The position numbers and the translations under genes are program-made. From Blastococcus aggregatus (lineage in GTDB: Bacteria; Actinomycetota; Actinomycetes; Mycobacteriales; Geodermatophilaceae), in the NCBI RefSeq assembly GCF_900221005.1, contig NZ_OBQI01000003.1, forward strand, positions 310,001-374,000: DNA of 64,000 nt, in the 5' to 3' direction. The notes under the pieces were generated by a model. It had not been told where the DNA came from and searched no databases. It worked only from the letters and a program-made list of their open reading frames with translations. Below, one piece after another: positions 5,523 to 53,065 of the stretch. The first letter of the stretch is position 1. Each line of letters opens with the position of its first letter.

Positions 5523-5562
5523 CCCTGGCCGACCACCCCCCGTTCCGGATCGAGGAGCCATC

Positions 5563-6561: not shown

Positions 6562-6570
6562 CGCGCTCGA

Positions 6571-9231: not shown

Positions 9232-9327
9232 GCGCTCCTCCGTACCGGCCGACGGCGGCCGCACGGTGCGACCGGCACGGGCCGGCCCCGTGCCGCTCAC
9301 CCTCGACGACCAGGAGCCCGGACAGGA

Positions 9328-9392: not shown

Positions 9393-9488
9393 GAGGACCT
9401 GTCTTCCGGCCGACGTGCCCGCGCTGCGGGGGTGCGCACAGTGGCGTGATCGCCACCGGCACGACCCTCGAGTGGGAGCTGCAGGCAG

Positions 9489-10898: not shown

Positions 10899-10956
10899 CC
10901 GTCGCGCGCGCCGCGGACCGGGCGGATCGGCCGAGGTCGCCGGCCCGGCGCGGGCG

Positions 10957-11997: not shown

Positions 11998-12078
11998 GTC
12001 CGCCTCCAGGGGTCGTGGGACGTCCACTCCACGCCAGGGGCACGGTCCGGTGGCACCGCCGGTCGTCCGCACCACCCG

Positions 12079-12132
12079 GGGTCGAAGGTCCGTGCCGCGC
12101 CCGCCGTCCGCATGCAGGGCCCTAGGTCCCTG
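12079..12132. promoter_or_regulatory. Two DosR-like boxes between adh and GH65 genes
   Basis: GGGTC-GAAG-GTCCG (12079-12092, one arm weaker) and GGGCC-CTAG-GTCCC (12117-12130, extended CAGGG/CCCTG arms 12115-12132) lie 38 bp apart, centre to centre, in the divergent spacer. The second is nearly identical to the box at 33516-33529. Confidence 0.55.
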
Positions 12133-12209
12133 CCCCGGAGGACGGGCTACCCGACCGCGGCGTCCCGCAGCCGGGGACGCTGATCCGGTTCGACGGAGAC
12201 AGGAGCAGC

Positions 12210-12269
12210 ATGCGCGTCGGGGCGAGCGGGGATGCGGCGGACTCCGAGCGGGACGGCGGGATCCGATGA
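12210..12269 (+). CDS. Possible 19-residue leader peptide ORF
   Basis: ATG 12210 follows AGGAG with suitable spacing and encodes 19 residues (begins MRVGASGDA). Its TGA at 12267-12269 overlaps the GH65 ATG (ATGA). The GH65 start has no strong ribosome site of its own, so this mini-ORF may load ribosomes by termination-reinitiation. No attenuator-type codon run is present. It may be a coupling device rather than a functional peptide. Confidence 0.4.
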   Translation: MRVGASGDAADSERDGGIR

Positions 12270-14674: not shown

Positions 14675-14832
14675 CCGGGCAGCTGTCCGGGCGCCGGCAG
14701 CGCCGCCGAGGGTCGCGCGCCGACGGCCATCCGACCCCGGAAGTGGGGACCAACTCCTCCCCCGCGAGGGTCCGCCGCCCCGCGACGCTCGTCCTGACCG
14801 GATTGCCGATCGCCGAGCGCCGAGGACCCCCG

Positions 14833-17259
14833 ATGACGGACACGACCACTTCCTCTTCGCAGCCGCCGAGCCCGCGGCCGCCGACGCACGACGCCCCGAC
14901 GACGACAGCCTCCGAACTCGTGGCGCGGCTGGACGCCCTCCGATCGGCCGACGTCGACCGGGCCGGAGGCAAGGGCGCCAACCTCGGCGAGATGGTGGGG
15001 GCCGGGTTCCCGGTACCGGGCGGCTTCGTCGTGCTCGCCGCATCGTTCCGGCGCGCGCTCGTCGCCACGCGCGCCGCCGTCGTCGACCTGAACGACGCGG
15101 CCCTGGAGGCGGCTCGGGAGCGCGCGTCGGGCGCCACGGAGGACCTCCTGGCCGCGGCCTGCTCCCGGCTGCAGGCGAGCATCCGGGAGGCGGGCATGCC
15201 GGAGGAGGTGGCCCGCGGGATCCGCGACGAGTACGCCCGGCTGGGGCCGGACGCCTCGGTCGCGGTGCGTTCCTCTGCCGTCGGCGAGGACAGCGCCGAC
15301 ACCTCCTACGCCGGCATGAATGCCACGTTCACCAACGTCCGGGGCGCCGAGGCACTCCTCGACGCGGTCATGGAGTGCTGGGCGTCCGCCTTCACACCAC
15401 GGGTCGTGGCCTACCGGGCGGAGCACGGCTCGTCGGACCTGCCCGACATCGCGGTGGTGGTCCAGCTGATGGCGCCGGCCGACAAGGCCGGCGTCGCGTT
15501 CACCGCCGATCCGGTGACCGGCCGTCGCGACCGGCTGATGGTGGAGGCGGCCTGGGGGCAGGGCGAGGTGGTCGTGAGCGGCCGGACCGAACCTGACACC
15601 TACGTCCTCGATGCCGACGGGCCCCGGCTGCTGGAGGTGCACCGCGGTGCCCAGAGCGCGAAGATCGTCGCCGCCCCCGGAGGGGGCGATCGGGTGCTGC
15701 CCGTCGGCGAGGGCGAGGCCGGGCCCGTCCTGAGCCGGGAGGAGGCCGAGCGGATCGCCGCCCTGGTGCTGCGGGTCCAGGAGCACTACGGCTGCCCGCA
15801 GGACGTCGAGTGGGTCCTCACCGAGGGCGTCCTGTCCCTGGTCCAGACGCGACCGATCACCACGCTGGCTCCCGCCGAGAGCTCCGCACCGGCCGGGAGC
15901 GGCCTCGCCGGGGAGCAGTCGGAGCCGCTGCTGCACGGGCTGGCCGCCTCGCCCGGCCAGGCCACCGGGCGGGTGCGGATCCTGCTCTCCCCCGCCGACG
16001 GCGTCCAGCTCGTCGACGGCGAGGTGCTGGTGGCTCCGCTGACCAACCCCGACTGGATGCCGGCGGTCCGCCGGGCCGCGGCACTGATCACCGACACCGG
16101 AGGGGTCACCTGTCACGCGGCGATCGTGGCCCGCGAGCTGGGCGTCCCGGCCGTCGTCGGCACGCGCAGCGGCACCCGCACCCTGACCGACGGCGACGTC
16201 GTGACCGTGGACGGGAACACCGGCCGGATCTGGGCCGGGCAGCACGGTGGGACCGCACCCGCCCCCCGTGCGAGCGCCACGACCGCGCCGGCCGCTGCGT
16301 CGCCGGCAGTGGTGGAGCTGACCGGGACCGGCGTCCACGTCAACCTGGCCGACGCCGCCCAGGCCACCGCGGTCGCCGAGCTGCCCGTCGACGGTGTCGG
16401 CCTGCTCCGCGCCGAGCTGCTCCTGACCCGGGCGCTGAGGGGGCAGCACCCCTCGGCGCTGATCGCGGCCGGGGAGTCCGAGCGGGTCGTCGCCGACCTG
16501 GCCGCCTCGATCGGCGCGATCGCGGGGGCCTTCGCGCCCCGGCCGGTGACCTACCGCACCGCCGACCTGCGCAGCAACGAGTTCCGCGGCCTCACCGGCG
16601 GCCAGGAGTACGAGCCGGTGGAGGACAACCCGATGATCGGCTACCGGGGCTGCTACCGGTACGTCCACGACCCGTCGTTCTTCAACCTCGAGCTCGCGGC
16701 GCTCGCCCGGGTGCGGGAGGAGTTCCCCGGTGTGGCGCTCATGATCCCGTTCGTGCGGACGAAGTGGGAGCTCGAGGCGTGCCTGACCCTCGTCGACGCC
16801 TCACCGCTCGGCCGGCAGCGCGGGCTGCGTCGCTGGGTGATGGCGGAGGTCCCGTCGGTGGCCTACTGGCTGCCGGAGTACATCGGGCTGGGAGTGGACG
16901 GCGTCTCGATCGGTAGCAACGACCTCACCCAGCTGGTGCTCGGGGTGGACCGCGACTCCGCCGACCTGGCCGAGTTGTTCGACGAGGCCGACCCCGCGGT
17001 GCTCGCCGTCATCGACTCCGTCATCGCCACGGCCCGGCGGATGGGCATCCCGTCGTCCCTGTGCGGGCAGGCCCCCTCCCGTCGCCCCGCGTTCGTGGAA
17101 CACCTCGTGCGCGCAGGGATCACCTCGGTCTCCGTGGAGCCGGCTGCCGTACCCGCGACCCGGCACGCGCTCGCCGCCGCGGAGCGACGGGTCCTGCTGG
17201 AGGCGGCTCACGGCGCCGCGTCCGGCTCCGGCGACGGGCGGCCGGCGTGGAGTCGCTAG
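14833..17259 (+). CDS. ppsA: Phosphoenolpyruvate synthase (PpsA-type)
   Basis: An 808-residue enzyme with N-terminal ATP-grasp (about 40-345), swivelling phospho-histidine domain (His428 in GVTCHAAIVARELG) and C-terminal PEP/pyruvate barrel (GSNDLTQ, active-site Cys744 in SSLCGQAPS). It converts pyruvate, ATP and water to PEP, AMP and phosphate. Length is close to E. coli PpsA. ATG 14833 is preceded by GAGGA. A half-conserved DosR-like box (GGGAC-CAAC-TCCTC) lies at 14746-14759. With the acyl-CoA synthetase fusion nearby it suggests rerouting of pyruvate/acetyl-CoA to gluconeogenesis in the dormant state. The stop overlaps the following gene by 13 bases. Confidence 0.93.
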   Translation: MTDTTTSSSQPPSPRPPTHDAPTTTASELVARLDALRSADVDRAGGKGANLGEMVGAGFPVPGGFVVLAASFRRALVATRAAVVDLNDAALEAARERASGATEDLLAAACSRLQASIREAGMPEEVARGIRDEYARLGPDASVAVRSSAVGEDSADTSYAGMNATFTNVRGAEALLDAVMECWASAFTPRVVAYRAEHGSSDLPDIAVVVQLMAPADKAGVAFTADPVTGRRDRLMVEAAWGQGEVVVSGRTEPDTYVLDADGPRLLEVHRGAQSAKIVAAPGGGDRVLPVGEGEAGPVLSREEAERIAALVLRVQEHYGCPQDVEWVLTEGVLSLVQTRPITTLAPAESSAPAGSGLAGEQSEPLLHGLAASPGQATGRVRILLSPADGVQLVDGEVLVAPLTNPDWMPAVRRAAALITDTGGVTCHAAIVARELGVPAVVGTRSGTRTLTDGDVVTVDGNTGRIWAGQHGGTAPAPRASATTAPAAASPAVVELTGTGVHVNLADAAQATAVAELPVDGVGLLRAELLLTRALRGQHPSALIAAGESERVVADLAASIGAIAGAFAPRPVTYRTADLRSNEFRGLTGGQEYEPVEDNPMIGYRGCYRYVHDPSFFNLELAALARVREEFPGVALMIPFVRTKWELEACLTLVDASPLGRQRGLRRWVMAEVPSVAYWLPEYIGLGVDGVSIGSNDLTQLVLGVDRDSADLAELFDEADPAVLAVIDSVIATARRMGIPSSLCGQAPSRRPAFVEHLVRAGITSVSVEPAAVPATRHALAAAERRVLLEAAHGAASGSGDGRPAWSR

Positions 17260-20602: not shown

Positions 20603-23200
20603 TCACACGGTCGCGGGTTCCGGCAGGAGGGCGCGCAGCCGCGCGCCGATCTCCGCCCGTACCGGAGCGCCGGAGAGCACGACGTCGACCATCGTCAGCG
20701 AGGTGTGCGTGTGCCCGCGGGCCGCCACGTGCTCGACCGGGACCCCGGCTGCGCGCAGCGCCTCGGCGTAGGCGATGCCCTCGTCGCGCAGCGGGTCGAA
20801 CTCGGCGGTCACCACGATCGCCGGCGGCAGGTCGTGGAGCCGGCCACGCAGCGGCGAGGCGGCCGGCTCGGTCCGCGCGGCCGGGTCGCAGTAGTGGTCC
20901 CAGAAGTACTGCATGACGCCGGCGGTCAGCACGTAGCCCTCGGCGTTCTCCCGGAACGAGTCCGTGGCCATGGCGGAGTCGGTGACCGGCGTCAGCAGCA
21001 GCTGCCCGCGCAGAGCGGGGCCGCCCTCCTCCCGGGCCCGCTGCGCCACGACCGCCGCGAGGTTGGCGCCGGCGCTCCACCCGGCCACGACCAGCTGGTC
21101 CGGGATGCCACCCAGCTCGATCGCGTGGTCGGCGACCCACCGGAGCGCGGCCCACGCGTCCTCGGCGGCCGCCGGGTAGCGGGCCTCGGGCCCGTGGCGG
21201 TAGTCCACCGACACCACGACGACGTCGCTGCGCGCGCAGAGGTCCCGGCACAACGGCTCGTCGGACCCGTGATCGCCGATGACCCATCCACCCCCGTGGA
21301 AGTACAGGACGACCGGGTGCGGCCCCGGGGAGGCCGGGCGGAACAGCCGGTAGGCCAGGTCGCCGGCCGGGCCCGGCAGGACCCCGTCGCGGACCTCGCC
21401 GACCTCGGGGCCGAGCGGGCGGTCGGCGTTCAGCGTGTCCATGAACTCCCGCAACTGCGCGGGCGGCAGGGACTCCAGCGCGGGGAGACCCAGCTGCGCC
21501 ATCATCTCCAGCACCACGGCCACGTCGGGCTGCAGCCGGCGGACGACGCCGTCGGTGCACTGCTCGCCGTCCGGACCGGTCAGCCGGAAGCCCAGGTAGT
21601 TCCGCTCGCGCACCTCGTCGGCCGCTGCCCGGTAGCCGTCGACGCCGCCGATGTAGGGGTAGAAGACGCGGGGCTTGCCGGGCACGTTGGCACCCATGTA
21701 CCAGGAGTTCGCGGTGGGGTGCAGCGTGATCGCCGCGCAGTCCGCGACGTGCCGGTTCCACCCCTCCTCGGCCAGCGCGGTCGGCTCGATCGTCGTCATC
21801 CCGCGGGCGCGCAGATCGGCCAGGCAGCCGGCCACCCAGTCGACGTGCTGCTCGATCGAGACGGCCATGTTCGACAGGACCGACGGGCTGCCGGGGCCGG
21901 TGATCGCGAAGAAGTTCGGGAAGCCCGCCGTCATCAGGCCCAGGTAGGTCGACGGGCCGTCGGCCCACTTCTCCTGGAGGGAAACGCCCTCGCGGCCCGC
22001 GACGTCGACCCCGACCAGCGCGCCGGTCATGGCGTCGAACCCGGTGGCGTAGACGATCGCGTCGACCTCGAACGACTCCCCCGCGGTGTCGATGCCGCTC
22101 TCGGTGATCGTGGTGATCGGCGTCTTCCGCAGATCGACCAGCCGGACGTGCGGGAGGTTGAACGTCGCGAAGTACCCGGTGTCCAGGCAGGGCCGCTTGG
22201 TGCCGAAGTAGTGGTCCCGCGGGGACAGCGCCTCGGCCGTCTCCGGATCGGTCACGACCGCGCGGATCTTCTCGCGGATGAACTCGGCGACGATCTCGTT
22301 CGACGCCGGATCGGTGCCCTGGTCGGCGAAGACGCTCGTGATCACCTGCAGCTCTCCCGCCTCCCACGCGCTCTCGAGCCGCTGCCGCCGCACGTCCTCC
22401 GGCGTCGTGACCCCCTTCAGCTCGGTGGCCTCGCCGGGGACGCCCATCCGGGACCACCGCGCCGATTCCCGGTAGGCGTCGCGGTCCGCGCGCAGCTGGT
22501 CGACCCGCGCCGCCGGTGCCGGTCCGTTGTGCGCCGGGATCGAGAAGTTCGGCGTCCGCTGGAAGACGGTCAGCTCCGCCGCCTGCTGGGCGATCAGCGG
22601 GATCGACTGGATCCCCGAGGAGCCGGTGCCGATGACGGCGACCCGCTTGCCGGTGAAGTCCACGCCCTCGTGCGGCCAGCGGCTGGTCAGGTGGACGTCT
22701 CCCCGGAAGCGGCCGGCCCCCTCGATCTCCGGCTCCTTCGGCACGGACAGGCAGCCCGTCGCCATCACGTAGGAGCGGCAGGTCACGGTCTCCCCGCCCG
22801 AGGTGTGCACCCGCCAGAGCTGCGCGGCGTCGTCCCACTCGGCCCGGTCGACCCGCGTGTCGAAGGTGATGTCGCGGCGGAGGTCGTAGCGGTCGGCCAC
22901 GAACTGCAGGTAGCGGAGGATCTCCGGCTGGGTGGCGTACTTCTCCGACCAGGTCCACTCCCGCTCGAGCTCGGGGTCGAAACCGAAGGTGTAGTCGGTC
23001 GTGGGGATGTCGCACCGGGCGCCCGGATAGCGGTTCCAGTACCAGGTCCCGCCGACGTCGCTCGCCTGCTCGAACCCGCGCGCGGAGAAGCCCGCCTCGC
23101 GCAGCCGGTGCAGCAGCATCAGCCCCGCGAAGCCGGCCCCCACGACGACGACGTCCACCTGCGGCTCCTGGCGCGCGTTCCGCCCTGCTTCCTCGGCCAT
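20603..23200 (-). CDS. Baeyer-Villiger monooxygenase fused to alpha/beta-hydrolase
   Basis: 865 residues in two enzymes. The N-terminal 540 are a flavin monooxygenase with FAD motif VVVGAGFAG, NADPH motif VIGTGSSG and a Baeyer-Villiger-like fingerprint (FRGDVHLTSRW, with Leu in place of Thr after the His). The C-terminal part (about 575-865) is an HSL-type esterase with oxyanion HGGG (His635), nucleophile Ser709 in GWSAG, Asp in EFDPLRDEG and His in RGHTH. The chain could insert oxygen next to a ketone and hydrolyse the ester to alcohol plus acid. ATG 23200 has GAGGG upstream. Ketone substrate is unknown; cyclic ketones or steroids are typical of the family. Confidence 0.9.
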   Translation of the reverse strand: MAEEAGRNARQEPQVDVVVVGAGFAGLMLLHRLREAGFSARGFEQASDVGGTWYWNRYPGARCDIPTTDYTFGFDPELEREWTWSEKYATQPEILRYLQFVADRYDLRRDITFDTRVDRAEWDDAAQLWRVHTSGGETVTCRSYVMATGCLSVPKEPEIEGAGRFRGDVHLTSRWPHEGVDFTGKRVAVIGTGSSGIQSIPLIAQQAAELTVFQRTPNFSIPAHNGPAPAARVDQLRADRDAYRESARWSRMGVPGEATELKGVTTPEDVRRQRLESAWEAGELQVITSVFADQGTDPASNEIVAEFIREKIRAVVTDPETAEALSPRDHYFGTKRPCLDTGYFATFNLPHVRLVDLRKTPITTITESGIDTAGESFEVDAIVYATGFDAMTGALVGVDVAGREGVSLQEKWADGPSTYLGLMTAGFPNFFAITGPGSPSVLSNMAVSIEQHVDWVAGCLADLRARGMTTIEPTALAEEGWNRHVADCAAITLHPTANSWYMGANVPGKPRVFYPYIGGVDGYRAAADEVRERNYLGFRLTGPDGEQCTDGVVRRLQPDVAVVLEMMAQLGLPALESLPPAQLREFMDTLNADRPLGPEVGEVRDGVLPGPAGDLAYRLFRPASPGPHPVVLYFHGGGWVIGDHGSDEPLCRDLCARSDVVVVSVDYRHGPEARYPAAAEDAWAALRWVADHAIELGGIPDQLVVAGWSAGANLAAVVAQRAREEGGPALRGQLLLTPVTDSAMATDSFRENAEGYVLTAGVMQYFWDHYCDPAARTEPAASPLRGRLHDLPPAIVVTAEFDPLRDEGIAYAEALRAAGVPVEHVAARGHTHTSLTMVDVVLSGAPVRAEIGARLRALLPEPATV

Positions 23201-44002: not shown

Positions 44003-44296
44003 TCAGCGCGGCCGGTTGGGCACGTAGTAGGTGAGGCCGGCGGCCCCGCCGAACGCCACCATCGCCGAGATCACGGCGGTGAGCCACTGGCCCGCGGTGA
44101 CGGAATCGAAGCCGGTGTCCGCGCCCCCGAGGGCGGTGAGCAGCGAGGAGAGGAACGCGAGGGTGGCGCTGTAGACGGCCGCCGCCCACGCCTTCGCCGC
44201 CGACGAATGCCCGACCCGAGCGGTGTCGGTCCCGGCACCCGTGCCGGCCTCCGTGTGCATCCCGGTGCCCGGCGACACCTCGTTCGGCGTTGTCAT
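44003..44296 (-). CDS. Holin-like two-helix membrane protein
   Basis: 97 residues. After a polar N-terminus come two hydrophobic segments (about 36-58 and 70-90), with GQWLTAVISAMVAFGGAAGLTY and a C-terminal YVPNRPR. This layout resembles small holins of actinobacteriophages, which end with TYxxPN. There are no phage genes nearby. ATG 44296 has GGGGGGAG upstream, and three GTGAC-type direct repeats with 11-bp period lie at 44353-44379. It could permeabilise the membrane or export the leaderless proteases of this cluster. Holin identity rests on pattern recognition. Confidence 0.6.
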   Translation of the reverse strand: MTTPNEVSPGTGMHTEAGTGAGTDTARVGHSSAAKAWAAAVYSATLAFLSSLLTALGGADTGFDSVTAGQWLTAVISAMVAFGGAAGLTYYVPNRPR

Positions 44297-44352
44297 GGCG
44301 TCTCCCCCCAGAGGTTCCCGCGTCCTCGCAGCCTCGACGGTCGCCTGAGCGC

Positions 44353-44379
44353 GTCACCCCGGCGTCACCGTCGCGTCGC
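44353..44379 (-). promoter_or_regulatory. SARP-type direct repeats, site 1
   Basis: On the plus strand GTCAC begins at 44353 and 44364 and GTCGC at 44375, an exact 11-bp period; read on the coding strand these are GTGAC repeats. It lies about 57-83 bases upstream of the holin-like start. Confidence 0.6.
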
Positions 44380-44396
44380 CACGGAACCGGTGGACC

Positions 44397-44786
44397 TCAG
44401 CCGGGGGCGGCCCGGCGGTCGATGGCACCGCGGGCGGCCAGTTCGAGGAGCCGGTCCGGCACCGCGCCGGTGACGTCGGTGCCGGTCAGCGTGGCGCCGT
44501 CGAACCGGGCACCCCGCAGGTCGGCTCCGGTGAGATCGGCCGCGGTCAGGTTCGCGCCCCGCAGGTCGGCGTCCTTCAGCCGGACCCCGGGTGCCCGGGC
44601 GGCGAACAGGATCGCGCCCCGCAGATCCGCCCCCTCGAGGTCGGTGTCCGCCAGCTGGGCGTAGGCCAGGTCGACCCCGGCCAGGGGCAGCCCCGACAGG
44701 TCGGCGCCCTGCAGATCCGCACCGTTGAGGGACCGGGACGGCCCGGCGAGCACGGCCTCGACGTCCGACCTGCCCCACCGCGCCAT
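44397..44786 (-). CDS. Pentapeptide-repeat protein
   Basis: 129 residues, about 16 A(D/N)LxG-type pentapeptides between residues 20 and 105 (for example GADLQGADLSG, DANLRGANL-like DADLRGANLTAADL). They should form a right-handed quadrilateral beta-helix. The short N-terminal helix (MARWGRSDVEAVLAG) and helical end (PDRLLELAARGAI) cap it. Some pentapeptide proteins mimic DNA and bind gyrase; others are scaffolds. It lies 32 bases behind the caspase-like gene and is probably expressed with it. Confidence 0.88.
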   Translation of the reverse strand: MARWGRSDVEAVLAGPSRSLNGADLQGADLSGLPLAGVDLAYAQLADTDLEGADLRGAILFAARAPGVRLKDADLRGANLTAADLTGADLRGARFDGATLTGTDVTGAVPDRLLELAARGAIDRRAAPG

Positions 44787-44796
44787 CCCGGTCCCG

Positions 44797-44830
44797 CCCG
44801 ATCAGCCGAAGAGCCCGATCAGCCGAAGAG
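44797..44830. repeat. Perfect 17-bp tandem duplication
   Basis: CCCGATCAGCCGAAGAG occurs at 44797-44813 and again at 44814-44830. The second copy contains the stop codon and last codons of the caspase-like gene; the first repeats them into the spacer. It looks like a recent slippage duplication without coding consequence. Confidence 0.85.
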
Positions 44831-46486
44831 CGTGGCCGTCACCCAGTAGCGCTTGCGGTAGCCGCCCTCGAACTCCAGCTCCATCGCCCGGCGGGCCACC
44901 ACGGTGGCCTCGGAGCCGTCGATCTCGTAGCCGACCTCCGTCGTCCCCGGGACGACGGCATACCCCGTCGGCGCGCCACCGCGCGCCACGAGGTCGCGCA
45001 GCCGCCGGCTGAACGCACGACCCAGCGCGATCTCGGGGTCCAGCGGCCCGTCGTCCGCGGTGGCGCGGGTGCCAGGGGGGACCGGGGCCGCGGCCATCGA
45101 GCGCGGCCGGTCGGAGAGCTGCTCGACCGCCCGCGTGCCGGCCTGCAGGTGGGTGACGGTCCCGCTGTTGTCCACGGTGACGCGGACGGCGCCGGCGCCC
45201 GGTGTGAGGACGGGCAGCCCGTTGATGAGCTGGCGGAACTGGATCATGGTCGCGGTCGTGACGGGCTCGTCGACGTGCCCGTCACCGGTGTCGGTCCCGC
45301 CCGCCTCCATCACGGGGACCACCCGGTCCAGGACGAGCGTGCCGTCGGCGTCGAGGCCGTAGGAACGCACGGCGCCCTCGGCCATCGCCGTGGCCTCGGC
45401 GCGGGCGAGCGGGGTGCGGTTCTCCCGGTCGGCCTCGGCCAGGGTGGCACTGAGGACGCCGTCGTCACCGATGTGCAGCCGGCGTTCGTCCGCACCGATG
45501 GACAGCAGGCCCGGGCCCTGCTGCACCTGGGCGCGGTCCACGCGGAACCGGTCGGCCAGGTCGCCCAGCGAGCGGGCGCCCACCGGCGCCAGGACCGCCC
45601 GACGCGGATCGCCCGGAAGCGCGTGCACGCCCTCCCGGACCGCACTGGCCCGGGTGTTGTACCAGCGCCACTGCCACCACGCGGTGCTGGCGCGGGCACG
45701 GTCGAAGAACCGCTCGTTGTCCAGCCGGTTCTGCGCCTCCTGCTGGGTGGCGCCGTTGGCCGAGACGCTGGGCGCCTGGTCGTGCGCGATGTCCCAGCTG
45801 GAGTTCAGCCAGGCCGACGTCAGGCTCTCCCCACGCCGCCAGTGGTTCCAGAAGCCGGATCCGTACCGGGCGTCGTCCCAGCTGACGGTCTCGAACCCGA
45901 AGATCATCCGGAGGCCCTGGTTGGCCGCCGCCCAGGTGCGGATGGGGCTGTGGCCCCCGAGCACCCGGAGGGACTCGCAGGTGGACCAGAACACGTACCG
46001 GGCGCGCTCGTTGCCCAGCCGCATGTTGGTCGAGGTGGCCGTGCAGTCGTTGCCGGCCCAGGCCGAGCCCATCGGCACGTAGAACACCCCGTTGGCGTCC
46101 ATGCCGCCGTGCCCGCAGTGGTAGACGGTGGTCACGGCGTCCGTGCCGTAGGTGTCCTGCCAGTTGTCGTAGTCCTCGTAGTAGGCCCAGGCCTGCACCC
46201 CGGCGTCCTGGTACCAGTAGTTCCGGGGGGTGAACTGCTCGGTGTACTGGAGGAACCCCGCCGTGTCGTCGTGGGTCAGGCTCAGCGGGCCGACGCTGCA
46301 GAAGGTCTCGATGCTGAAGGCGCCGTAGAGGTTGGCGACAGCGCGTGCGCCGGCCCCGGCGTCGGCGGCCGGGTTCTCGCCCTGGACCTGCATCGGTGCG
46401 AGGGGCGCGGAAGTCTGGCGTCCACCGGTGCGTGGCGGGGCGGCGGTGCGTCCGCCGGTGCGCGGCTGGGTCACGGTCACGGTCAT
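44819..46486 (-). CDS. Caspase-like (DUF6345-type) His/Cys protein
   Basis: 555 residues. The N-terminal part (about 50-270) has a His in CGHGG (His126) and a Cys in FWSTCESL (Cys170), spaced like the His/Cys dyad of clan CD peptidases and matching the DUF6345 pattern. WYQDAGVQAWAYYEDYDNW and GHSPIRTWAAANQGLRMIFG are strongly conserved-looking. The C-terminal half (about 300-555) is beta-rich and unassigned, perhaps regulatory. No signal peptide or membrane segment. ATG 46486 has GAGGAG three bases upstream; an earlier ATG at 46516 is possible. It is preceded by GTGAC direct repeats. Peptidase activity is untested inference. Confidence 0.75.
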   Translation of the reverse strand: MTVTVTQPRTGGRTAAPPRTGGRQTSAPLAPMQVQGENPAADAGAGARAVANLYGAFSIETFCSVGPLSLTHDDTAGFLQYTEQFTPRNYWYQDAGVQAWAYYEDYDNWQDTYGTDAVTTVYHCGHGGMDANGVFYVPMGSAWAGNDCTATSTNMRLGNERARYVFWSTCESLRVLGGHSPIRTWAAANQGLRMIFGFETVSWDDARYGSGFWNHWRRGESLTSAWLNSSWDIAHDQAPSVSANGATQQEAQNRLDNERFFDRARASTAWWQWRWYNTRASAVREGVHALPGDPRRAVLAPVGARSLGDLADRFRVDRAQVQQGPGLLSIGADERRLHIGDDGVLSATLAEADRENRTPLARAEATAMAEGAVRSYGLDADGTLVLDRVVPVMEAGGTDTGDGHVDEPVTTATMIQFRQLINGLPVLTPGAGAVRVTVDNSGTVTHLQAGTRAVEQLSDRPRSMAAAPVPPGTRATADDGPLDPEIALGRAFSRRLRDLVARGGAPTGYAVVPGTTEVGYEIDGSEATVVARRAMELEFEGGYRKRYWVTATLFG

Positions 46487-46530
46487 CCACTCCTCGAGGG
46501 CTGGCGGGTACCCCACGCTCCTCGGACGGC

Positions 46531-46546
46531 GTCAACGACCCGTCAC
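46531..46546 (-). promoter_or_regulatory. SARP-type direct repeats, site 2
   Basis: Plus-strand GTCAA at 46531 and GTCAC at 46542 (11-bp period); coding strand GTGAC-N6-TTGAC, where TTGAC can also serve as -35. It is about 45-60 bases upstream of the caspase-like start. Confidence 0.6.
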
Positions 46547-46555
46547 CACCGGCGG

Positions 46556-46798
46556 CTACCAGGTCGTCGGTGAGTCCGGCGGCCCGACGTCGACGGCCGG
46601 GGCCTCCTCCTCCACGGCGGCCACGCCGGGGACGGCGCGCAGCCTGTCCCCGGCGTCGGCGGCCGCCGCCCCGACGATGACGCCGATCCCGTCCAGCACC
46701 TGCTCGGTGTCCAGCCCCTGCCCCGCCAGCTCGGCGGCGACCTCCGCGAGATCCCGCTGCCCGTCGGTGGTGACCACCCAGCGCACGGTGCCGTCCAC
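46556..46798 (-). CDS. Free-standing inhibitor-I9/propeptide-like protein
   Basis: 80 residues. VRWVVTTDGQRDLAEVAAEL, then a second strand IGVIVGAAAA and the ending RLRAVPGVAAVEEE resemble the beta-alpha-beta I9 fold of subtilisin propeptides, which fold and inhibit the protease. Here it is a separate gene directly behind a subtilase gene (20 bases). GTG 46798 has GAGGAGG five bases ahead. It may inhibit the intracellular subtilases in trans. Assignment is from pattern and context. Confidence 0.65.
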   Translation of the reverse strand: MDGTVRWVVTTDGQRDLAEVAAELAGQGLDTEQVLDGIGVIVGAAAADAGDRLRAVPGVAAVEEEAPAVDVGPPDSPTTW

Positions 46799-46818
46799 GG
46801 CGTCCTCCTCGACGGGCC

Positions 46819-48155
46819 TCAGGGAGCCTGGACCATCCCGGCCCCCACCCGGCCGGCCGGCAGCGGGAGCTGCCGGGCCGAGGAGAGGAGCTTGCGCCAC
46901 AGCTGCGGACCGCGCAGGGACGCCGAGGACTGCGCCCAGAGGGCGGCGCAGCCGGCGACGTGCGGGGTGGCCATGCTCGTCCCGCTCTTCGTGCCGTACC
47001 GGGTCGGCCGCGGCACCGAGGAGAAGACGTCCCGCCCCGGGGCGGCGATCTCCACCTTGCCGGAGTTGGAGAACGACGACGGCGTGAGCGTCTGGTCCAG
47101 GGAGGCGACCGACAGGATCGTCGGCGAGTTCGCCGGGGCGCCGGTCGCCGCGGCGGCGTTGCCCGCGGCGGCCACGATCAGGCAGCCGTTGGCCAGGGCG
47201 GCCCGCCCCGCCGCGGTGTACGCGGCCTGGACCGGTGCCTGCGAGCCCAGCGACATCGAGATGACCTCGCAGCGGTTGGCGATCGCCCAGTTCATCCCGG
47301 CCAGCACGCCGGCGGTGGCGCCCGAACCGCTGTTGGACAGCACCTTGCCCGCGTAGATCGAGGACCGGGAGCCGATGCCGTACCGCGGCGCCGTGCCGGC
47401 CGGCGACTTCGGGCCGCAGGCGGTGCCGATGCAGTGCGTGCCGTGACTGTGCCGGTCCTGCACGGGCTCGCCGGTGAAGCTCTGCCCGGCGATCTGCCGC
47501 CCGGCGAAGTCGGGGTGCCCCAGGTCCAGGCCGGTGTCGAGCACGGCGACCCGGATGCCGGCCCCGGTGCGCCGGCTCGCGGGCACCCGGCACGCCACCA
47601 GCCCCAGGTGGCGTCCACGGCGAGGATCTCCTCCTCCGCGTCGGCCCCGTCGGTGTGCGCCAGGCCGGTGCCGAGGTCGCGGGCGATGACCTCGGCCGCC
47701 TGGACGAAGCCGCGCAGGTAGTCGATGACCCGGTCGTTGTCCTGGGCCGCGGTACGGGTGCGCAGCGTCTCGACGAGGTCCTGCTCGGCGAAGACGAAGT
47801 ACTCGGGCTCGATCGTCTGGATGGGGCTGTCGGACGCGATCGCGGCCGCTGCGGTCATGCCCCGCTCCGTCGCCGCCGGGCCGCTGAGCACGGCCGCCCC
47901 GATCTCCGGGAAGACCAGCACCTCGGCGTCCCCGACGTCGCCCAGGGCGACGGCCTGGGCGTCGAAGTCACGGGCGTCGGCCATCCGCAGGCCGCTGGCA
48001 CCCAGGCCCTGGATGCCGGCCTCCAGGGCGTCCTCGTGGAAGGTCGCGATGTAGCGGCCGGTCTCGAGGCCGTCGGCGCCGCTCTCCTGTGCGGCCGCCA
48101 GGAGTTCGTCGACCGTCGTCGACAGGGTCGGACCGGACGATCCGGAACTGGTCAT
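46819..48155 (-). pseudogene. S8 subtilisin-family protease, frameshifted
   Basis: The N-terminal part (ATG 48155) reads through a prodomain to VDATWG and then leaves frame. The catalytic part continues in another frame from about 47600: VACRVPASRRTGAG, then Asp in AVLDTGLD, His in SHGTHCIG, Asn in AAAGNAAA and Ser in GTSMATPHVAG, ending at 46819. Alignment with the intact paralogue at 50205 (TWGVTAVRADRSSRTGAG) shows one missing base in the CCCC run at 47602-47605. All catalytic residues survive, so this is a recent mutation, phase variation or a sequencing error. No signal peptide. Direct repeats of SARP type lie upstream. Confidence 0.8.
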
Positions 48156-48214
48156 GGCGGGACACCACCGTCTCTGGGCGCGGGCTGGGATCCCGCCGAG
48201 CCTCCGCCTCCTGC

Positions 48215-48241
48215 GTCACCGGACCGTCAACGCGCCGTCAC
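48215..48241 (-). promoter_or_regulatory. SARP-type direct repeats, site 3
   Basis: Plus-strand GTCAC at 48215, GTCAA at 48226 and GTCAC at 48237, exact 11-bp period. It lies 60-86 bases upstream of the frameshifted protease and overlaps the 3' end of the first SARP gene. Confidence 0.65.
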
Positions 48242-49021
48242 CCCCGCCGCCCGGCGCCCGCCGGTCGCCGTCCGCGCCCGCGGCACTGCGGCCCGGTCCC
48301 GGGCCGGAGGCGCCGGTCGCCCGCACCACGGGGCGACGAGCGCCTGCATCTGCGCGGTGGGCGCGACCGCGAGCTCGCGCCCGAGCGCATCCCGGAAGGC
48401 GACGTAGGCACCGATCGCCTCGGCGAGGTTCCCCTCCGCCAGGTGGGCCCGGACGAGCACCCGGTGCGCGCTCTCCCGGAGCGGCTCATCGCGGACCGCC
48501 GCGTAGGCCGCCTGCACCGCCTCGCCGTGCCGCCCCGCGCGGATCAGCCGATCGGCCAGCGCCTCGAGCGCGTGCATCCGCAGCTGGCACAGCCGCTCCC
48601 GCTCGAGCAGCACCCAGTCGTCGTACCAGCCGGGCAGGAGATCGCCCGCGACCGCGGTCACCGGCCGGTCGATGCGCGCCAGCGGCACCGCCGGGTCCAG
48701 GACGGCGTGCACCCAGCCGACCAGCTCGCGGACGTCGACCCGGACCCCGCGCGCGAGCGCGAGCCCGTCGCCGGTCACCTCCACCAGGCCGGGCACCGCC
48801 TTCTGCACCCGCCACAGCGCCGACCGCAGGCTGCCGTGAGCGCGCGCCTCGGGGACGTCGGGCCACAGCTGCCCGGCGATCGCCTCGCGCCCCGGTCGCC
48901 GGCACAGGCCCAGGTGCGCGATCACCCGCTGGACGCCGTGCGGAAGGCCGCCCACCGCCGGCCCGCCGTCCGGCGAGACGCGGAAGCCGTCGAGCAGCCA
49001 GACGCTCGGCCCGGTGGTCAC
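48227..49021 (-). CDS. SARP-family regulator (winged helix + BTAD), second of a pair
   Basis: 264 residues: OmpR-type winged helix (about 5-95; LWPDVPEARAHGSLRSALWRVQK) and bacterial transcriptional activation domain (about 100-245; LLPGWYDDWVLLERERLCQLR). It is a small SARP activator without ATPase or sensor domains. GTG 49021 overlaps the stop of the upstream SARP gene (GTGA), so both are made together and may heterodimerise. SARPs bind direct repeats with 11-bp period; five such sites lie in this cluster. The C-terminal 25 residues are Arg/Pro-rich. Confidence 0.9.
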   Translation of the reverse strand: MTTGPSVWLLDGFRVSPDGGPAVGGLPHGVQRVIAHLGLCRRPGREAIAGQLWPDVPEARAHGSLRSALWRVQKAVPGLVEVTGDGLALARGVRVDVRELVGWVHAVLDPAVPLARIDRPVTAVAGDLLPGWYDDWVLLERERLCQLRMHALEALADRLIRAGRHGEAVQAAYAAVRDEPLRESAHRVLVRAHLAEGNLAEAIGAYVAFRDALGRELAVAPTAQMQALVAPWCGRPAPPARDRAAVPRARTATGGRRAAGVTAR

Positions 49022-49755
49022 GTCGGCCCGCCCCTGCTGCCCGACGACGCACCGGCCAGCAGCCCGGTCATGGACGGGCTCGGGGCGGCACCCAGCGAGA
49101 CGGCCAGCAGCTGCCGGAACCGCTCGTAGACCCGGCGCGCGCCCTCCTCGTCCCCGGCGGCCAGGCGGGCGCGGACGAGCGACCGGTGCGCGCTCTCCCG
49201 GAGCGGCTCCTCCCGGACGGCGGCTCCCGCCGCCCGCACGGCCTCGCCGGGGCGCCCGGCGGCCGTCAGCCGGTCGGCCAGCAGCTCCAGCGCGTGCAGC
49301 CGCAACTGGCGCAGCCGCTCCCGCTCCAGCACCACCCACTCCTCCGGCCAGCCGGGCAGCAACCGACCGAGCAGCTCGGGGCCGGGGACCGTCAGCCCGC
49401 CGTCGCCCGTGCGCGGGTCGGTCACCCGCGCCGCCCAGGCCTCGAGGTCGTGCGCGTCGACGCGCACGCCACCGGCCAGCACCAGCGCCGTACCGGTCCC
49501 CTCCACCAGGCCGGGGGCCAGCTGCCGGAGCCGCCACAGGGTCGAGCGCAGGTTCGCGTGCGCTCGATCCTCCGGCACCTCGGGCCAGAGGCGGCCGGCG
49601 AGGACGTCGCGGTCGGGGCAGCGGGACAGGGCGAGCCGCGCCAGCAGGCGCTGGACCGCCCGCGGCGGATCGGGACCGGGCAGGGAGCTGCCATCGGCGG
49701 TCCGCAGCGCGAAGCCGCCGAGCAGCCTCACCGAGGGAGTCGTCGCGAGCGCCAT
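49018..49755 (-). CDS. SARP-family regulator (winged helix + BTAD), first of a pair
   Basis: 245 residues: winged helix (about 8-98; LWPEVPEDRAHANLRSTLWRLRQ) and BTAD (about 105-235; LLPGWPEEWVVLERERLRQLR). Its sequence is clearly paralogous to the following gene. ATG 49755. No direct repeat lies immediately before it, so it is probably transcribed from the promoter of the protease at 51389 with the small gene between. The pair would then be activated by its own regulon promoter (inference). Confidence 0.92.
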   Translation of the reverse strand: MALATTPSVRLLGGFALRTADGSSLPGPDPPRAVQRLLARLALSRCPDRDVLAGRLWPEVPEDRAHANLRSTLWRLRQLAPGLVEGTGTALVLAGGVRVDAHDLEAWAARVTDPRTGDGGLTVPGPELLGRLLPGWPEEWVVLERERLRQLRLHALELLADRLTAAGRPGEAVRAAGAAVREEPLRESAHRSLVRARLAAGDEEGARRVYERFRQLLAVSLGAAPSPSMTGLLAGASSGSRGGPT

Positions 49756-49829
49756 GGGGCCACCCCAGGGGGCACCATCGGTCCGGGACCCAGGTGTTCA
49801 GGTGCCGCCGACTGCGAATCGTCGAGCGC

Positions 49830-50135
49830 TCAGCCGCCGCTGTCAATCGTCCCGGGCGCGTCCCCGAGGAACTCGGCCAGCCAGGCCCGCACGGCGTCCA
49901 CCACGCCGTCCGGGGACGACGCCAGCACGACCGCGGGCTCCTCGGGCGCCGCACTCCCGGGGGACGTCGGCGTGCCCGTGAGGCGGGCGCGGAAGTCCCC
50001 CGAACCGCGCTCGACCCAGACGCGGACGACCAGCGCGGCGCTGCGGTCGCTGTCCACGGTCACCGTCCGTCGGGCTCGTCGCCGGCGCGGGAGGCGGGCC
50101 GGCGTCCACGCCCCGGGACGGTCGTGGACGCCCAT
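49830..50135 (-). CDS. Small protein of unknown function
   Basis: 101 residues, no recognised family. A basic N-terminal third (LPRRRRARRTVTV) is followed by beta-strand-like ALVVRVWVERGSGDF and an acidic helical end (DAVRAWLAEFL). ATG 50135 has a GGCGGGGGT stretch upstream; a second in-frame ATG does not change the core. It lies between a subtilase and the SARP pair, on the same strand, so it may be a protease partner or co-regulator. Confidence 0.6.
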   Translation of the reverse strand: MGVHDRPGAWTPARLPRRRRARRTVTVDSDRSAALVVRVWVERGSGDFRARLTGTPTSPGSAAPEEPAVVLASSPDGVVDAVRAWLAEFLGDAPGTIDSGG

Positions 50136-50204
50136 GGTCACCCCCGCCTGCCGGCCGGGCACTCCCCCGTCGGTGCGACACCCGCCCGGGCGACGGCCCC
50201 GGAC

Positions 50205-51389
50205 TCAGGGCGCCTGCACGATCCCCAGCCCGCGGTCGGCCGGGTCGACGCCCGCTGCCAGGCCGGTGGTCGTGGCGGTGGCCAGCAGCTTGGCGAGGGC
50301 AGCCCGCGCCGAAAGCGGGAGGTTCGCCGCGACGAGCTCCTCCCACCACAGCGCGGCCACCCCGGCGACGTGCGGCGTCGCCATGCTCGTGCCGATGAGG
50401 CTCTGCAGGCCACCGCCCACCTTTGCCGACAGCACCTTCACGCCCGGGCCGCTGACCTGCGGGAACGTGTTGGAGAAGGGGGCCACCTGCAGCCCCCCGG
50501 CTCCCTCCCCCAGCGCGCCGACCGACACCACGCCGTCGGCGGCCGCCGGGATGGACACGGCGATCTCGTAGTCCGGGTTCACCGAGCGCCGGCTCTCGTT
50601 GCCCGCCGCCGCCACGAACACGCACCCGCCCCCGAACGGCTCCCGACCGCGGGCCAGCGCCATCAGCGCGTCAAACATCCGCAGGTTGGCGCGGTAGGCC
50701 TCCAGCGCCGCGGAGGTGGCGAGGTCGGCGGGCCAGTCCCTGCCCACGAGGTCCTGGACCATGCCGGGGAAGTCGAACCCGAGGGACATCGACACGACCT
50801 GCGCGTGGTTGTCCAGCGCCCACTGGATGCCGCGGAAGATCATGTCGGAGTCGCCGCTGCCGTTGTCGCCGAGCACCTTGCCGATCAGGGCCTGGCCGAC
50901 GCCCGGGGCCACACCGATGCGGGTGCCGCCCACGTCCCGGCCGAAGACCGTGCCGGCGCAGTGCGTCCCGTGCCCCTGCTTGTCGCCGTCGCCCGAGCCG
51001 GAGAAGTCCATCTGGGTCAGCTGCACGCCCGCGAAAGCGGGGTGCGCCGCGTCGATGCCGGTGTCGAGGACGGCCACGACCACCCCGGCCCCGGTGCGCG
51101 ACGAGCGGTCCGCCCGGACGGCGGTGACGCCCCACGTCGGGCCCGCCGCGGTCGCCGGGCCGTCCTCCGCCTCTCCGACCGGGTGCACGAGCCGCGTCGG
51201 CATCACCGGGGCGATGGCCCGGACCTCGGGGTCCCGGCCGATCGCACGGACGTCTGCCTTGTCCAGGCTCTCGACGTCCACCCGGAGGCCCACCGAGCCC
51301 AGATCCGGCGCACCCGCCGCGGCCGCTCCTCCGTAGGGCTCGTCGGTCCTGGCCGACGCCATGTCCCGCAGAACGGTGTACGTGCGCAT
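50205..51389 (-). CDS. Intracellular S8 subtilisin-family protease
   Basis: 394 residues with a short pro-region and a complete triad: Asp109 (AVLDTGID), His140 (GHGTHCAG), oxyanion Asn in AAAGNES and Ser in GTSMATPHVAG. There is no signal peptide, so it stays in the cytoplasm unless released by lysis. ATG 51389 has GAGGAG upstream. Three GTGAC/GTGAT repeats with 11-bp period lie 79-105 bases upstream. It heads the unit that includes the small protein and both SARP genes. The short extra segment around residues 225-245 is unusual for the family. Confidence 0.92.
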   Translation of the reverse strand: MRTYTVLRDMASARTDEPYGGAAAAGAPDLGSVGLRVDVESLDKADVRAIGRDPEVRAIAPVMPTRLVHPVGEAEDGPATAAGPTWGVTAVRADRSSRTGAGVVVAVLDTGIDAAHPAFAGVQLTQMDFSGSGDGDKQGHGTHCAGTVFGRDVGGTRIGVAPGVGQALIGKVLGDNGSGDSDMIFRGIQWALDNHAQVVSMSLGFDFPGMVQDLVGRDWPADLATSAALEAYRANLRMFDALMALARGREPFGGGCVFVAAAGNESRRSVNPDYEIAVSIPAAADGVVSVGALGEGAGGLQVAPFSNTFPQVSGPGVKVLSAKVGGGLQSLIGTSMATPHVAGVAALWWEELVAANLPLSARAALAKLLATATTTGLAAGVDPADRGLGIVQAP

Positions 51390-51467
51390 GCTGGTCTCCT
51401 CGGATCGGCGCGGTTCCGGTGGTCCGCCGCCGCGCGGAGGACCGCGTTCCCAGCGTCGGGACCGCGC

Positions 51468-51494
51468 ATCACCGCGGCGTCACCCGCGCGTCAC
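51468..51494 (-). promoter_or_regulatory. SARP-type direct repeats, site 4
   Basis: Plus-strand ATCAC at 51468, GTCAC at 51479 and GTCAC at 51490, exact 11-bp period, upstream of the protease/SARP unit. Confidence 0.65.
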
Positions 51495-51518
51495 GCCGGG
51501 CGGGCTGCACCCGGCCGG

Positions 51519-52988
51519 CTACACGGACTGGATCGCGCGCATGAGGTCGACCAGCCCGTTGCCCTGGAAGTAGGGCTCGCGGTCCAGCGACGTCGCCGAT
51601 CGGCAGAAGATCCGCTTCACCTCCTCGGGCTGACCGATGAACTCCCGCCGGATGGAGAGGAACGCGGCGATGGCCCCCGACACGTGCGGGGCCGCCATGC
51701 TGGTCCCGCTGTCCTCGATGTAGAGCGCGCACTCCTCGGCGTCGTCGCCGAGCAGCTCGAGCAGCGGCGCGCGGTTGCGTCCCGCCGCGCAGGACGTGAT
51801 GCGCTCGCCCGGTGCGACGAGGTCGGGCTTGGACCGGCCGTCCCCCGTGGGGCCCTTGGAGGAGAAGTAGGAGACGCCGTAGGTGTGCGGCATGTGCCGG
51901 TGGGTCGCCCCGACGGTGATCGCCAGCCGCGCGTTCCCGGGGTCGTTGATCGTCATCGGGACGCCGACCTTCGTCTGGCGCTGGCTGGAGCTCAGCACCG
52001 CGTAGCCGGTGTTGCCCGCGGCCACCACCACGACCACCCCGGACCGGACCAGCCGGTCGACCTCCACGCACAGCGGGCTCTGGCCGCAGGCGAACCACGC
52101 GGCGTCGAACTCGTACCCGACGCTGAGGTTCACCCCCTGGACGCGCATCAGCTTGCTCTGCCCGTTGAGCTCCTTCCGGACGTACTCGAGCGCCCGGACG
52201 ATGTTCATCGAGCTGCCCGCGCCGTCGTCGTCGAGCACCTTCAGGCTCACCAGCTCGGTGAGCGGGGCGACGCCGTGCAACTGCGCCGGCGAGTCGACCG
52301 TCCGGCGCTGCAGCCGCCCGGTGCGCGGGTGGGCCGGATCGAACTGGTACTCCCCGGCGAGGTAGGGCGCGGTCGCGGCCAGCCCGCCGGAGATGATCCC
52401 GGCCACGTGCGTCCCGTGCCCGAACCCGTCCACCAGGGCGCCGTCGATGTCCGGCTCGTCCTTGGTGAAGTCGCGGTGCAGGCCGCGGACGTCGCCGTCC
52501 AGGACGGACGCGAGGTGCGGATGCCGCCCGTCGACGCCGGAGTCGATGACCGCCCAGGTGATCCCGCGGCCCATCGCGTCGTACGCGCGGCCGGCCGCAT
52601 CCGCCTTGACCGTCGTCACCGACCGGTCGACCAGCGGCTCCACCGGGAAGTCCGGCCAGATCCGGTAGATCGCGCGCTCCCGGCGGTCCTCGTGGGCGAG
52701 GTCGATCCGGCACAGCTCGCGCACCTGCTCGACCGACATCAGGCCGCGGTAGTAGGTGTCGGCGATGCGCACCGCCCGCGCGTCGGTGACCTCCCGCCAC
52801 TCGGCCTCGAAGGCGGTGACGGCGGCGGTCAGCCCCCCGGCGTGCTCGAGGTTGAGCTCGACGACGACCGGCACCGGATCCGCATCGTCCCGGGACAGCC
52901 CGATCCGCGCACGCTCGTCGGGGTCGATGAGCGCGTCGGCGACCATGCTGTTCCGGATGAACGGCCGGTTCCGCGGTTCCCCGGGCAT
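51519..52988 (-). CDS. Larger intracellular S8 subtilisin-family protease
   Basis: 489 residues. Asp149 (AVIDSGVD), His in GHGTHVAG, Asn in AAAGNTGY and Ser in DSGTSMAAPHVSG form the full triad. An approximately 130-residue N-terminal domain precedes it and a long insert (about 195-235) follows the His. No signal peptide. I start at ATG 52988 because GGAGGAGGAGG lies directly upstream; GTG 53054 would start inside the regulatory repeat. It is 129 bases upstream of the next protease and has its own repeats. The acidic calcium-type loops suggest structural stability. Confidence 0.9.
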   Translation of the reverse strand: MPGEPRNRPFIRNSMVADALIDPDERARIGLSRDDADPVPVVVELNLEHAGGLTAAVTAFEAEWREVTDARAVRIADTYYRGLMSVEQVRELCRIDLAHEDRRERAIYRIWPDFPVEPLVDRSVTTVKADAAGRAYDAMGRGITWAVIDSGVDGRHPHLASVLDGDVRGLHRDFTKDEPDIDGALVDGFGHGTHVAGIISGGLAATAPYLAGEYQFDPAHPRTGRLQRRTVDSPAQLHGVAPLTELVSLKVLDDDGAGSSMNIVRALEYVRKELNGQSKLMRVQGVNLSVGYEFDAAWFACGQSPLCVEVDRLVRSGVVVVVAAGNTGYAVLSSSQRQTKVGVPMTINDPGNARLAITVGATHRHMPHTYGVSYFSSKGPTGDGRSKPDLVAPGERITSCAAGRNRAPLLELLGDDAEECALYIEDSGTSMAAPHVSGAIAAFLSIRREFIGQPEEVKRIFCRSATSLDREPYFQGNGLVDLMRAIQSV

Positions 52989-53049
52989 CCGCCTCCTCCT
53001 CCGGGACGCGTGCTCCTGCCCGCCCGTCGCCGAAGGCTCCCGCGGACCC

Positions 53050-53065
53050 GTCACCGTGCCGTCAC
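53050..53065 (-). promoter_or_regulatory. SARP-type direct repeats, site 5
   Basis: Plus-strand GTCAC at 53050 and 53061 (11-bp period). It lies 62-77 bases before the ATG of the larger protease, in the gap shared with the divergent ABC transporter. Confidence 0.6.

What the first reader, a model, noticed from the sequence alone, without database searches (positions are those of the whole stretch)
44003..53065. SARP-controlled cluster of leaderless subtilases, a caspase-like protein, a free propeptide and a holin-like protein
One strand carries three S8 proteases with complete triads but no signal peptide, a DUF6345-type His/Cys protein, an I9-like protein, a pentapeptide protein, a two-helix holin-like protein and two coupled SARP regulators. 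Cytosolic proteases plus an inhibitor, a caspase-like fold and a membrane-permeabilising candidate suggest a regulated self-digestion, lysis or protease-release module. I know of no described system with this composition.
Basis: partly seen in the sequence, partly recalled or inferred. Interest (0 to 1): 0.9.

Follow-up and report, generated by a model that had tools for sequence, protein, structure and literature searches.

The report
SARP-linked protease island with holin-like protein
A soil actinobacterium carries a run of genes for three proteases that seem to lack export signals, a protein of unknown function, a possible inhibitor and a phage-type membrane protein next to two regulators; parts of this set recur in related bacteria and resemble bacterial cell-death and conflict systems, but what it does is untested.

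Summary
The gene set is real, with corrections. The third subtilase is split between two frames; the window has one nucleotide fewer there than two intact relatives. The I9 and caspase-like assignments could not be confirmed.

protC marks a recurring island in 32 of 112 family genomes, with a SARP within 3 kb at 35 of 41 sites examined. The holin-like gene occurs in 6 of 112 genomes, always 2-38 kb from protC. The 80-aa gene follows S8c in 3 of 3 genomes. DUF6345 does not co-occur (1 of 112). The five S8b contexts read outside the family hold NACHT, CHAT, caspase, TIR, trypsin-like or nuclease genes; S8a contexts do not.

Best reading: an island that works like peptidase-based conflict or cell-death systems, put under SARP control and given a phage-derived holin, partly built by lateral transfer. 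It is not a member of Kaur et al. System 3. Function is inferred, not shown.

The parts
51519..53054 (-). S8a: subtilase (511 aa, or 489 aa from 52988), no signal peptide seen; relatives are followed by an alpha/beta-hydrolase-like gene, absent here
   Evidence: PADLOC subtilase PDLC03014 E 2e-49; triad motifs; hydrolase follows in 6 of 6 S8a relatives whose downstream side was read
50205..51389 (-). S8b: subtilase (394 aa) with its own N-terminal prodomain
   Evidence: PF00082 E 1.5e-37; 85% and 74% in G063 and G004; 62% Nonomuraea, 57% Sphingomonas, 50% Agrobacterium
49830..50063 (-). protC: 77-aa protein of no known family, SARP-linked (a longer start at 50162 is possible)
   Evidence: nothing above noise in Pfam, NCBIfam, PHROGs, PADLOC; 32 of 112 family genomes; SARP within 3 kb at 35 of 41 sites
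49018..49755 (-). SARP1 (245 aa)
   Evidence: BTAD PF03704 E 6e-18
48227..49021 (-). SARP2 (264 aa), overlaps SARP1 by 4 bp
   Evidence: BTAD PF03704 E 3e-19; overlap
47595..48155 (-). Prodomain of the third subtilase (S8n); its frame runs on to 47292
   Evidence: matches the residues before the catalytic domain in G042 and G039
46819..47598 (-). Catalytic domain of the third subtilase (S8c), in another frame
   Evidence: PF00082 E 1.8e-40; frames; DNA comparison with two relatives
46556..46798 (-). 80-aa protein after S8c; candidate free propeptide or inhibitor
   Evidence: follows S8c in 3 of 3 genomes; I9 assignment not confirmed
44819..46516 (-). DUF6345 protein, 565 aa, with conserved HxGH motif and a Cys that is not conserved
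   Evidence: PF19872 E 1.1e-14; alignment of 6
44397..44786 (-). Pentapeptide-repeat protein
   Evidence: PF00805 E 1.1e-26; a pentapeptide gene also follows DUF6345 on 2 of 3 Paracoccus plasmids read
44003..44296 (-). Holin-like protein (97 aa), two hydrophobic segments
   Evidence: 6 of 112 genomes, all near protC; viral relative 37%

Best explanation
The locus is one of a recurring class of actinobacterial islands marked by the small protC gene and one or more stand-alone SARP activators. SHOWN: protC-SARP linkage and recurrence, linkage of the holin-like gene to protC, and the conflict-type neighbours of S8b relatives in the contexts read. INFERRED: the SARPs switch the island on under stress or attack; S8a and S8b, which show no export signal, act inside the cell as executioner or activating proteases; the 80-aa protein restrains S8c-type enzyme; DUF6345 with the pentapeptide protein is a separately acquired pair; the phage-derived holin-like protein opens the membrane, ending in cell death with release of the hydrolases. 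In this genome the third subtilase is probably inactive, unless the sequence has an error there. It works like a peptidase-based conflict system; it is not filed as a member of a described one.
For: protC in 32 of 112 family genomes, SARP within 3 kb at 35 of 41 sites; SARP match in 10 of 11 remote protC loci tested. Holin-like gene in 6 of 112 genomes, 6 of 6 among the 32 protC genomes (Fisher p 3.8e-4), on the same contig 2-38 kb away (my subtraction of positions). G020 has holin-like, SARP, S8 and protC within about 7 kb. The crude signal-peptide rule fires on 0 of 14 island S8 proteins (at least 3 of these lack their true N terminus: two cut by a stretch end, and the window's S8c) and on 61 of 352 control proteins. 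S8b contexts outside the family, 5 of 5 read: caspase and TIR (Sphingomonas); CHAT, TIR, caspase, nuclease (Agrobacterium); trypsin-like, caspase (Bradyrhizobium); CHAT, trypsin-like, nuclease (S. meliloti); NACHT, trypsin-like (Nonomuraea). Names are the records' own. G063 S8b is beside a TIR gene.
Against: No expression, lysis or protease data. The full set was found only here. DUF6345 is in 1 of 112 family genomes and on one annotated Paracoccus plasmid lies between a regulator and purM. S8 is in 7 of 33 island stretches and 1 of 20 controls, not a convincing difference; the other cargo families in that control were defined from the islands, so their comparison is circular. Many islands carry DyP, P450, peroxidase or other genes with no obvious death role. 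S8a relatives on three plasmids read sit with a hydrolase and no death-type genes. No peptidoglycan hydrolase was recognised in the run. Only 5 contexts were read of 221 plasmid records with an S8b match, 10 of which cover at least 80%.
Confidence: 0.36

Rival explanations
1. Holin-mediated release of signal-less hydrolases as extracellular weapons or public goods, in the manner of TcdE or type 10 secretion: the holin-like protein lets folded enzymes out of some cells.
For: Holin-like gene near protC in 6 of 6 genomes; in relatives it is flanked by enzymes of usually exported kinds with no signal peptide by the crude rule: LGFP/galactose-oxidase-like, an M43 peptidase, an M14 peptidase, animal-type haem peroxidase. 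Holin-dependent secretion of signal-less proteins is described (PMC9527704, passages).
Against: No peptidoglycan hydrolase recognised in the run; another M14 family in the islands has a signal-like N terminus in 1 of 2 copies; DyP, P450 and IDO cargo is plausibly cytosolic; no holin was annotated in the S8b contexts.
Confidence: 0.22
2. Cargo or accessory enzymes of contractile injection systems: protC-SARP serves contractile tail loci and their effectors, and the window is an orphan set without the tail.
For: 13 of 20 sheath-positive genomes have protC, against 32 of 112 overall (Fisher p 1.9e-4). G004 has protC-S8b-S8a-hydrolase-Endonuclease_NS followed by a sheath gene. In distant G203 sheath- and tube-like genes, named by eye with no profile run, lie beside the SARP at its protC.
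Against: No sheath in the window's genome; 19 of 32 protC genomes have none; PF04984 also matches ordinary phage tails, and genome-level co-occurrence does not correct for relatedness.
Confidence: 0.12
3. Proteolytic processing cluster: SARP-controlled proteases mature a peptide or proprotein, with no role in death.
For: SARPs usually control biosynthetic clusters (established knowledge); NCBIfam finds similarity to mycosin and PatA-type maturation proteases.
Against: Those matches are below the curated cut-offs; no precursor or modifying enzyme recognised in the run; unrelated hydrolases in sister islands.
Confidence: 0.12
4. Accidental neighbourhood: several lateral acquisitions (DUF6345-pentapeptide, holin-like, S8 genes) landed beside a SARP pair and share no function.
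For: DUF6345 in 1 of 112 genomes with best relatives at 42-46% outside the family; third subtilase split; variable cargo.
Against: Repeated protC-SARP, S8c-80-aa and holin-protC linkage.
Confidence: 0.18

Closest known systems
System 3 of Kaur et al. 2020: NucA-type nuclease plus trypsin-like peptidase, sometimes with S8 (PMC7159879; section 32 read whole; passages)
   Same: S8b relatives on Agrobacterium and S. meliloti plasmids lie in loci with a DNA/RNA non-specific endonuclease; G004 has S8b, S8a and Endonuclease_NS in one run.
   Different: No nuclease or trypsin-like gene was recognised in the window's run; it has SARP, protC, DUF6345 and a holin-like protein. The paper's main text has 0 hits for SARP, BTAD or holin.
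Nuclease-protease pairs in antiviral immunity (PMC12799240; search listing with start of abstract only)
   Same: A protease as the activating part of a defence module.
   Different: That protease is trypsin-like and activates a nuclease; neither is in this run.
Holin-dependent release: TcdE and type 10 secretion (PMC9527704 passages; PMC3369941 and PMC10847048 search listing only)
   Same: Small membrane protein linked to enzymes without signal peptides.
   Different: No endolysin recognised in the run; SARP-linked; cargo are proteases rather than the known toxins or chitinases.
Bacterial gasdermin operons (PMC9079055 and PMC9612521; search listing only)
   Same: Protease plus membrane-permeabilising candidate.
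   Different: The membrane protein is holin-like, not gasdermin; activation by cleavage is untested.
IetAS anti-phage system (PADLOC models)
   Same: S8a, S8b and S8c match IetS models weakly (S8a best, E 4e-13).
   Different: Another PADLOC subtilase model scores much better (S8a E 2e-49), and no AAA ATPase was recognised in the run.
Cytoplasmic contractile injection systems that cause cell death in Streptomyces (PMC12237407; search listing only)
   Same: Sheath genes and protC co-occur in this family.
   Different: No sheath in the window's genome.

Membership tests
Peptidase S8 (subtilases) | S8 domain with Asp, His, Ser motifs | tested here: met
   for S8a, S8b and the S8c ORF; the S8c gene is frame-split
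SARP regulators | BTAD domain after an N-terminal DNA-binding domain | tested here: inconclusive
   BTAD met in both; the DNA-binding part had no Pfam hit of its own and rests on position and recall
DUF6345 (PF19872) | Score above the gathering cut-off | tested here: met
   54.9 bits against 26.9
Caspase-like (clan CD) peptidases | Caspase-like fold with His-Cys dyad | tested here: inconclusive
   model failed; no usable PDB sequence relative; Cys absent in 2 of 6 relatives
Inhibitor I9 propeptides | Match to an I9 profile or fold | tested here: not met
   no Pfam I9 hit at E<=1; no profile match to the S8b prodomain; poor single-sequence model
Phage holins | Small protein with membrane segments, homologous to a lysis-cassette gene | tested here: inconclusive
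   two hydrophobic stretches; PHROG holin only E 0.2; viral relative 37% near a peptidoglycan-binding protein; no match in phage records nor with the single sequence in viral contigs
Kaur System 3 conflict systems | NucA nuclease plus trypsin-like peptidase | tested here: not met
   neither recognised in the run
Contractile injection system locus | Tail sheath gene in or near the locus | tested here: not met
   no PF04984 match in the window's genome

The most novel reading that the evidence does not exclude
protC-SARP islands are an undescribed actinobacterial death-and-release system: a SARP switch deploys an interchangeable set of signal-less proteases, phospholipases, nucleases and peroxidases, with a captured phage holin in some members, to digest and open the cell, and the same switch serves contractile injection systems in relatives.
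Probability: 0.2. Interest if true: 0.85.

Novelty: new variant of a known kind. Interest (0 to 1): 0.6.

Why it matters
Stand-alone SARPs are known as switches of antibiotic clusters. SARP-linked islands whose cargo is degradative enzymes, a phage-type holin and, in some genomes, contractile tails would extend SARP control to conflict or cell-death biology, and protC offers a simple marker for finding them. In the open-licence PMC library searched, no paper held DUF6345, three of S8 family/SARP/caspase/pentapeptide repeat, four of the six peroxidase-patatin-SARP-DyP-subtilase-Actinobacteria terms, 'SARP family' with holin, or Geodermatophil with contractile injection; subscription papers are mostly not in it.

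Tried and rejected
Structure of DUF6345: a two-sequence alignment gave pLDDT 37.6, so no fold search was made. Structure of the 80-aa protein: one sequence, pLDDT 69, not used. Profile comparison of the 80-aa protein with the S8b prodomain: nothing. PDB profile searches with protC, the 80-aa protein and DUF6345 gave nothing usable; the one protC hit, a 'circular tendon repeat protein', was reported with 0 qualifying stretches and was dropped. Viral relatives of DUF6345: none. The Paracoccus 521-aa gene beside DUF6345-pentapeptide looked SARP-like by eye, but BLASTP with SARP1 gave E 0.78 and Pfam only a weak TPR: not claimed. Cargo comparison with 20 control stretches is circular for every family but S8. 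Alignment A7 had two rows in the wrong orientation and was replaced by A8. Promoter/terminator scan found nothing.
Full report
WHAT IS THERE. Between 44003 and 53054 on the minus strand are, in order of transcription, S8a, S8b, protC, SARP1, SARP2, a split subtilase (prodomain S8n, catalytic S8c), an 80-aa protein, DUF6345, a pentapeptide-repeat protein and a holin-like protein; gaps are -4 to 141 bp. The genes called on both flanks are on the plus strand. Domain calls: Peptidase_S8 in S8b and S8c, BTAD in both SARPs, DUF6345, pentapeptide repeats; S8a, not given to Pfam, by NCBIfam, PHROGs and PADLOC models. All three S8 sequences hold the Asp, His and Ser motifs, and none of the window proteins given to a crude hydropathy rule has a signal-peptide-like N terminus.

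THE THIRD SUBTILASE IS SPLIT. S8n and S8c lie in different frames. Searching 112 family genomes with S8n gave 15 with a hit at E<=0.001: the window's own, two close relatives, G042 (73%) and G039 (60%), and 12 weak ones (best E 8e-7 to 3.4e-4). In the two close relatives prodomain and catalytic domain (83% and 79%) are one open frame. The window has one nucleotide fewer there. Whether this is a real mutation or a sequence error cannot be told from the data.

A MISSED GENE MARKS THE ISLANDS. protC (77 aa) had no family above noise. A profile of four copies found it in 32 of 112 family genomes at 42 places, one of them weak. Stretches around these places were fetched. In 34 stretches (window, L071, L132-L162, L164; L163, which holds the weak place, was left out) tblastn gave 41 protC sites, 35 with a SARP within 3 kb and 17 with one directly downstream on the same strand. 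In 396 genomes drawn from the phylum, 13 including this one have protC at E<=0.001; of 11 remote loci tested, 10 have a SARP match within the roughly 3-kb locus. So protC is SARP-linked beyond this family.

CARGO. Neighbours in the islands include S8, DyP-type and animal-type haem peroxidases, patatin and Tle1-like phospholipases, Endonuclease_NS, M14 and M43 peptidases, P450, DUF2278 and LGFP/galactose-oxidase-like proteins; families were named from one or a few representatives each. S8 occurred in 7 of 33 island stretches and 1 of 20 control stretches, not a convincing difference; the other families were defined from the islands, so their comparison is circular. The crude signal rule fired on 0 of 14 island S8 proteins, of which at least three lack a true N terminus (two cut by the end of a stretch, and the window's S8c), and on 61 of 352 control proteins; it also fired on 1 of 2 copies of one M14 family and 2 of 5 patatins.

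HOLIN-LIKE GENE. It occurs in 6 of 112 genomes, all among the 32 with protC (p 3.8e-4), always on the same contig, about 2 to 38 kb away (positions). In G020 it lies within about 7 kb of an animal-peroxidase-like gene, SARP, S8, hydrolase and protC. With the window sequence alone no relative was found in phage records or viral contigs; with a four-row alignment one viral contig gave a relative (37% over 68 residues), two genes downstream of a peptidoglycan-binding protein, which fits a lysis-cassette origin. The best PHROG holin match is only E 0.2.

S8b AND S8a ELSEWHERE. S8b has relatives at 85% (G063) and 74% (G004) in the family, and on plasmid records at 62% (Nonomuraea), 57% (Sphingomonas), 50% (Agrobacterium), 44% (Bradyrhizobium) and 37% (S. 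meliloti). I read these five contexts (of 221 matching records, 10 covering at least 80% of the query); all five have conflict-type neighbours: caspase and TIR; CHAT, TIR, caspase and nuclease; trypsin-like and caspase; CHAT, trypsin-like and nuclease; NACHT and trypsin-like. No island protein called, protC and SARPs included, other than S8, nuclease, trypsin-like, peroxidase and some common families (ABC ATPases among them) matched these stretches, so protC-SARP was not seen there. G063 S8b is beside a TIR gene. Kaur et al. 2020 describe NucA plus trypsin-like systems, sometimes with S8, mostly in alphaproteobacteria (PMC7159879, section 32 read whole). S8a tells a different story: its relatives are followed by an alpha/beta-hydrolase-like gene in G020, G109, G004, Rhodococcus, Rhizobium and Sinorhizobium (6 of 6 whose downstream side was read), and the three plasmid contexts hold transporter, thiamine, LanC-like, transposase, P450 and hypothetical genes, none of the death type. 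The window lacks that hydrolase; one hydrolase copy (G104, L163) has no S8 match in its stretch.

DUF6345. Present in 1 of 112 family genomes and 11 of 396 from the phylum including this one, 9 above the cut-off. Relatives over most of the length at 32-46% occur in a Methanotrichaceae MAG, two other actinobacterial genomes and Paracoccus plasmids. A pentapeptide gene follows it on two of three Paracoccus plasmids read. In G311 it lies near an animal-peroxidase-like fragment at the contig end, an alpha/beta hydrolase (profile-scanned) and a gene that by eye resembles an M4 peptidase. Two His are invariant in the six aligned; the Cys is not. This looks like a laterally moved unit; the caspase-like idea stays open.

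CONTRACTILE TAILS. Sheath genes (PF04984) are in 20 of 112 genomes, 19 over the cut-off, none in the window's genome. 13 of the 20 also have protC (p 1.9e-4, not corrected for relatedness). In G004 protC, S8b, S8a, hydrolase and Endonuclease_NS run up to a sheath gene. In G203, elsewhere in the phylum, genes that by eye are sheath and tube lie beside the SARP at its protC.

VERDICT. A conflict or cell-death role is the best-supported function, by analogy of neighbourhoods only.

Noticed in passing
L222 (G203:C59:32000-51900), 5145-11150: A distant actinobacterial genome has a SARP beside sheath- and tube-like contractile tail genes at a protC place; gene names by eye.
   Followed up: partly
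L170 (Nonomuraea record), 1573-13206: Catalase-like/animal-peroxidase fusion, trypsin-like protein, NACHT protein and S8b relative within 12 kb.
   Followed up: partly
L073 (G063:C9:16500-36400), 11235-16992: TIR gene beside S8b, followed by genes that by eye are VWA, PP2C-like and kinase; of these only the TIR gene was profile-scanned.
   Followed up: no
L225 7699-9006, L226 7183-8511, L227 7204-8532, L165 2890-4251, L156 8365-9756, L161 17568-18869: S8a-type subtilases and an alpha/beta-hydrolase-like protein form a two-gene pair shared by actinobacteria and rhizobia.
   Followed up: partly
L016 11366-12931: A 521-aa Paracoccus gene next to DUF6345-pentapeptide looks like a SARP-type regulator by eye but matches SARP1 only at E 0.78.
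   Followed up: partly
window 21321-21409: ARAGORN reports a tRNA with an undetermined anticodon.
   Followed up: no
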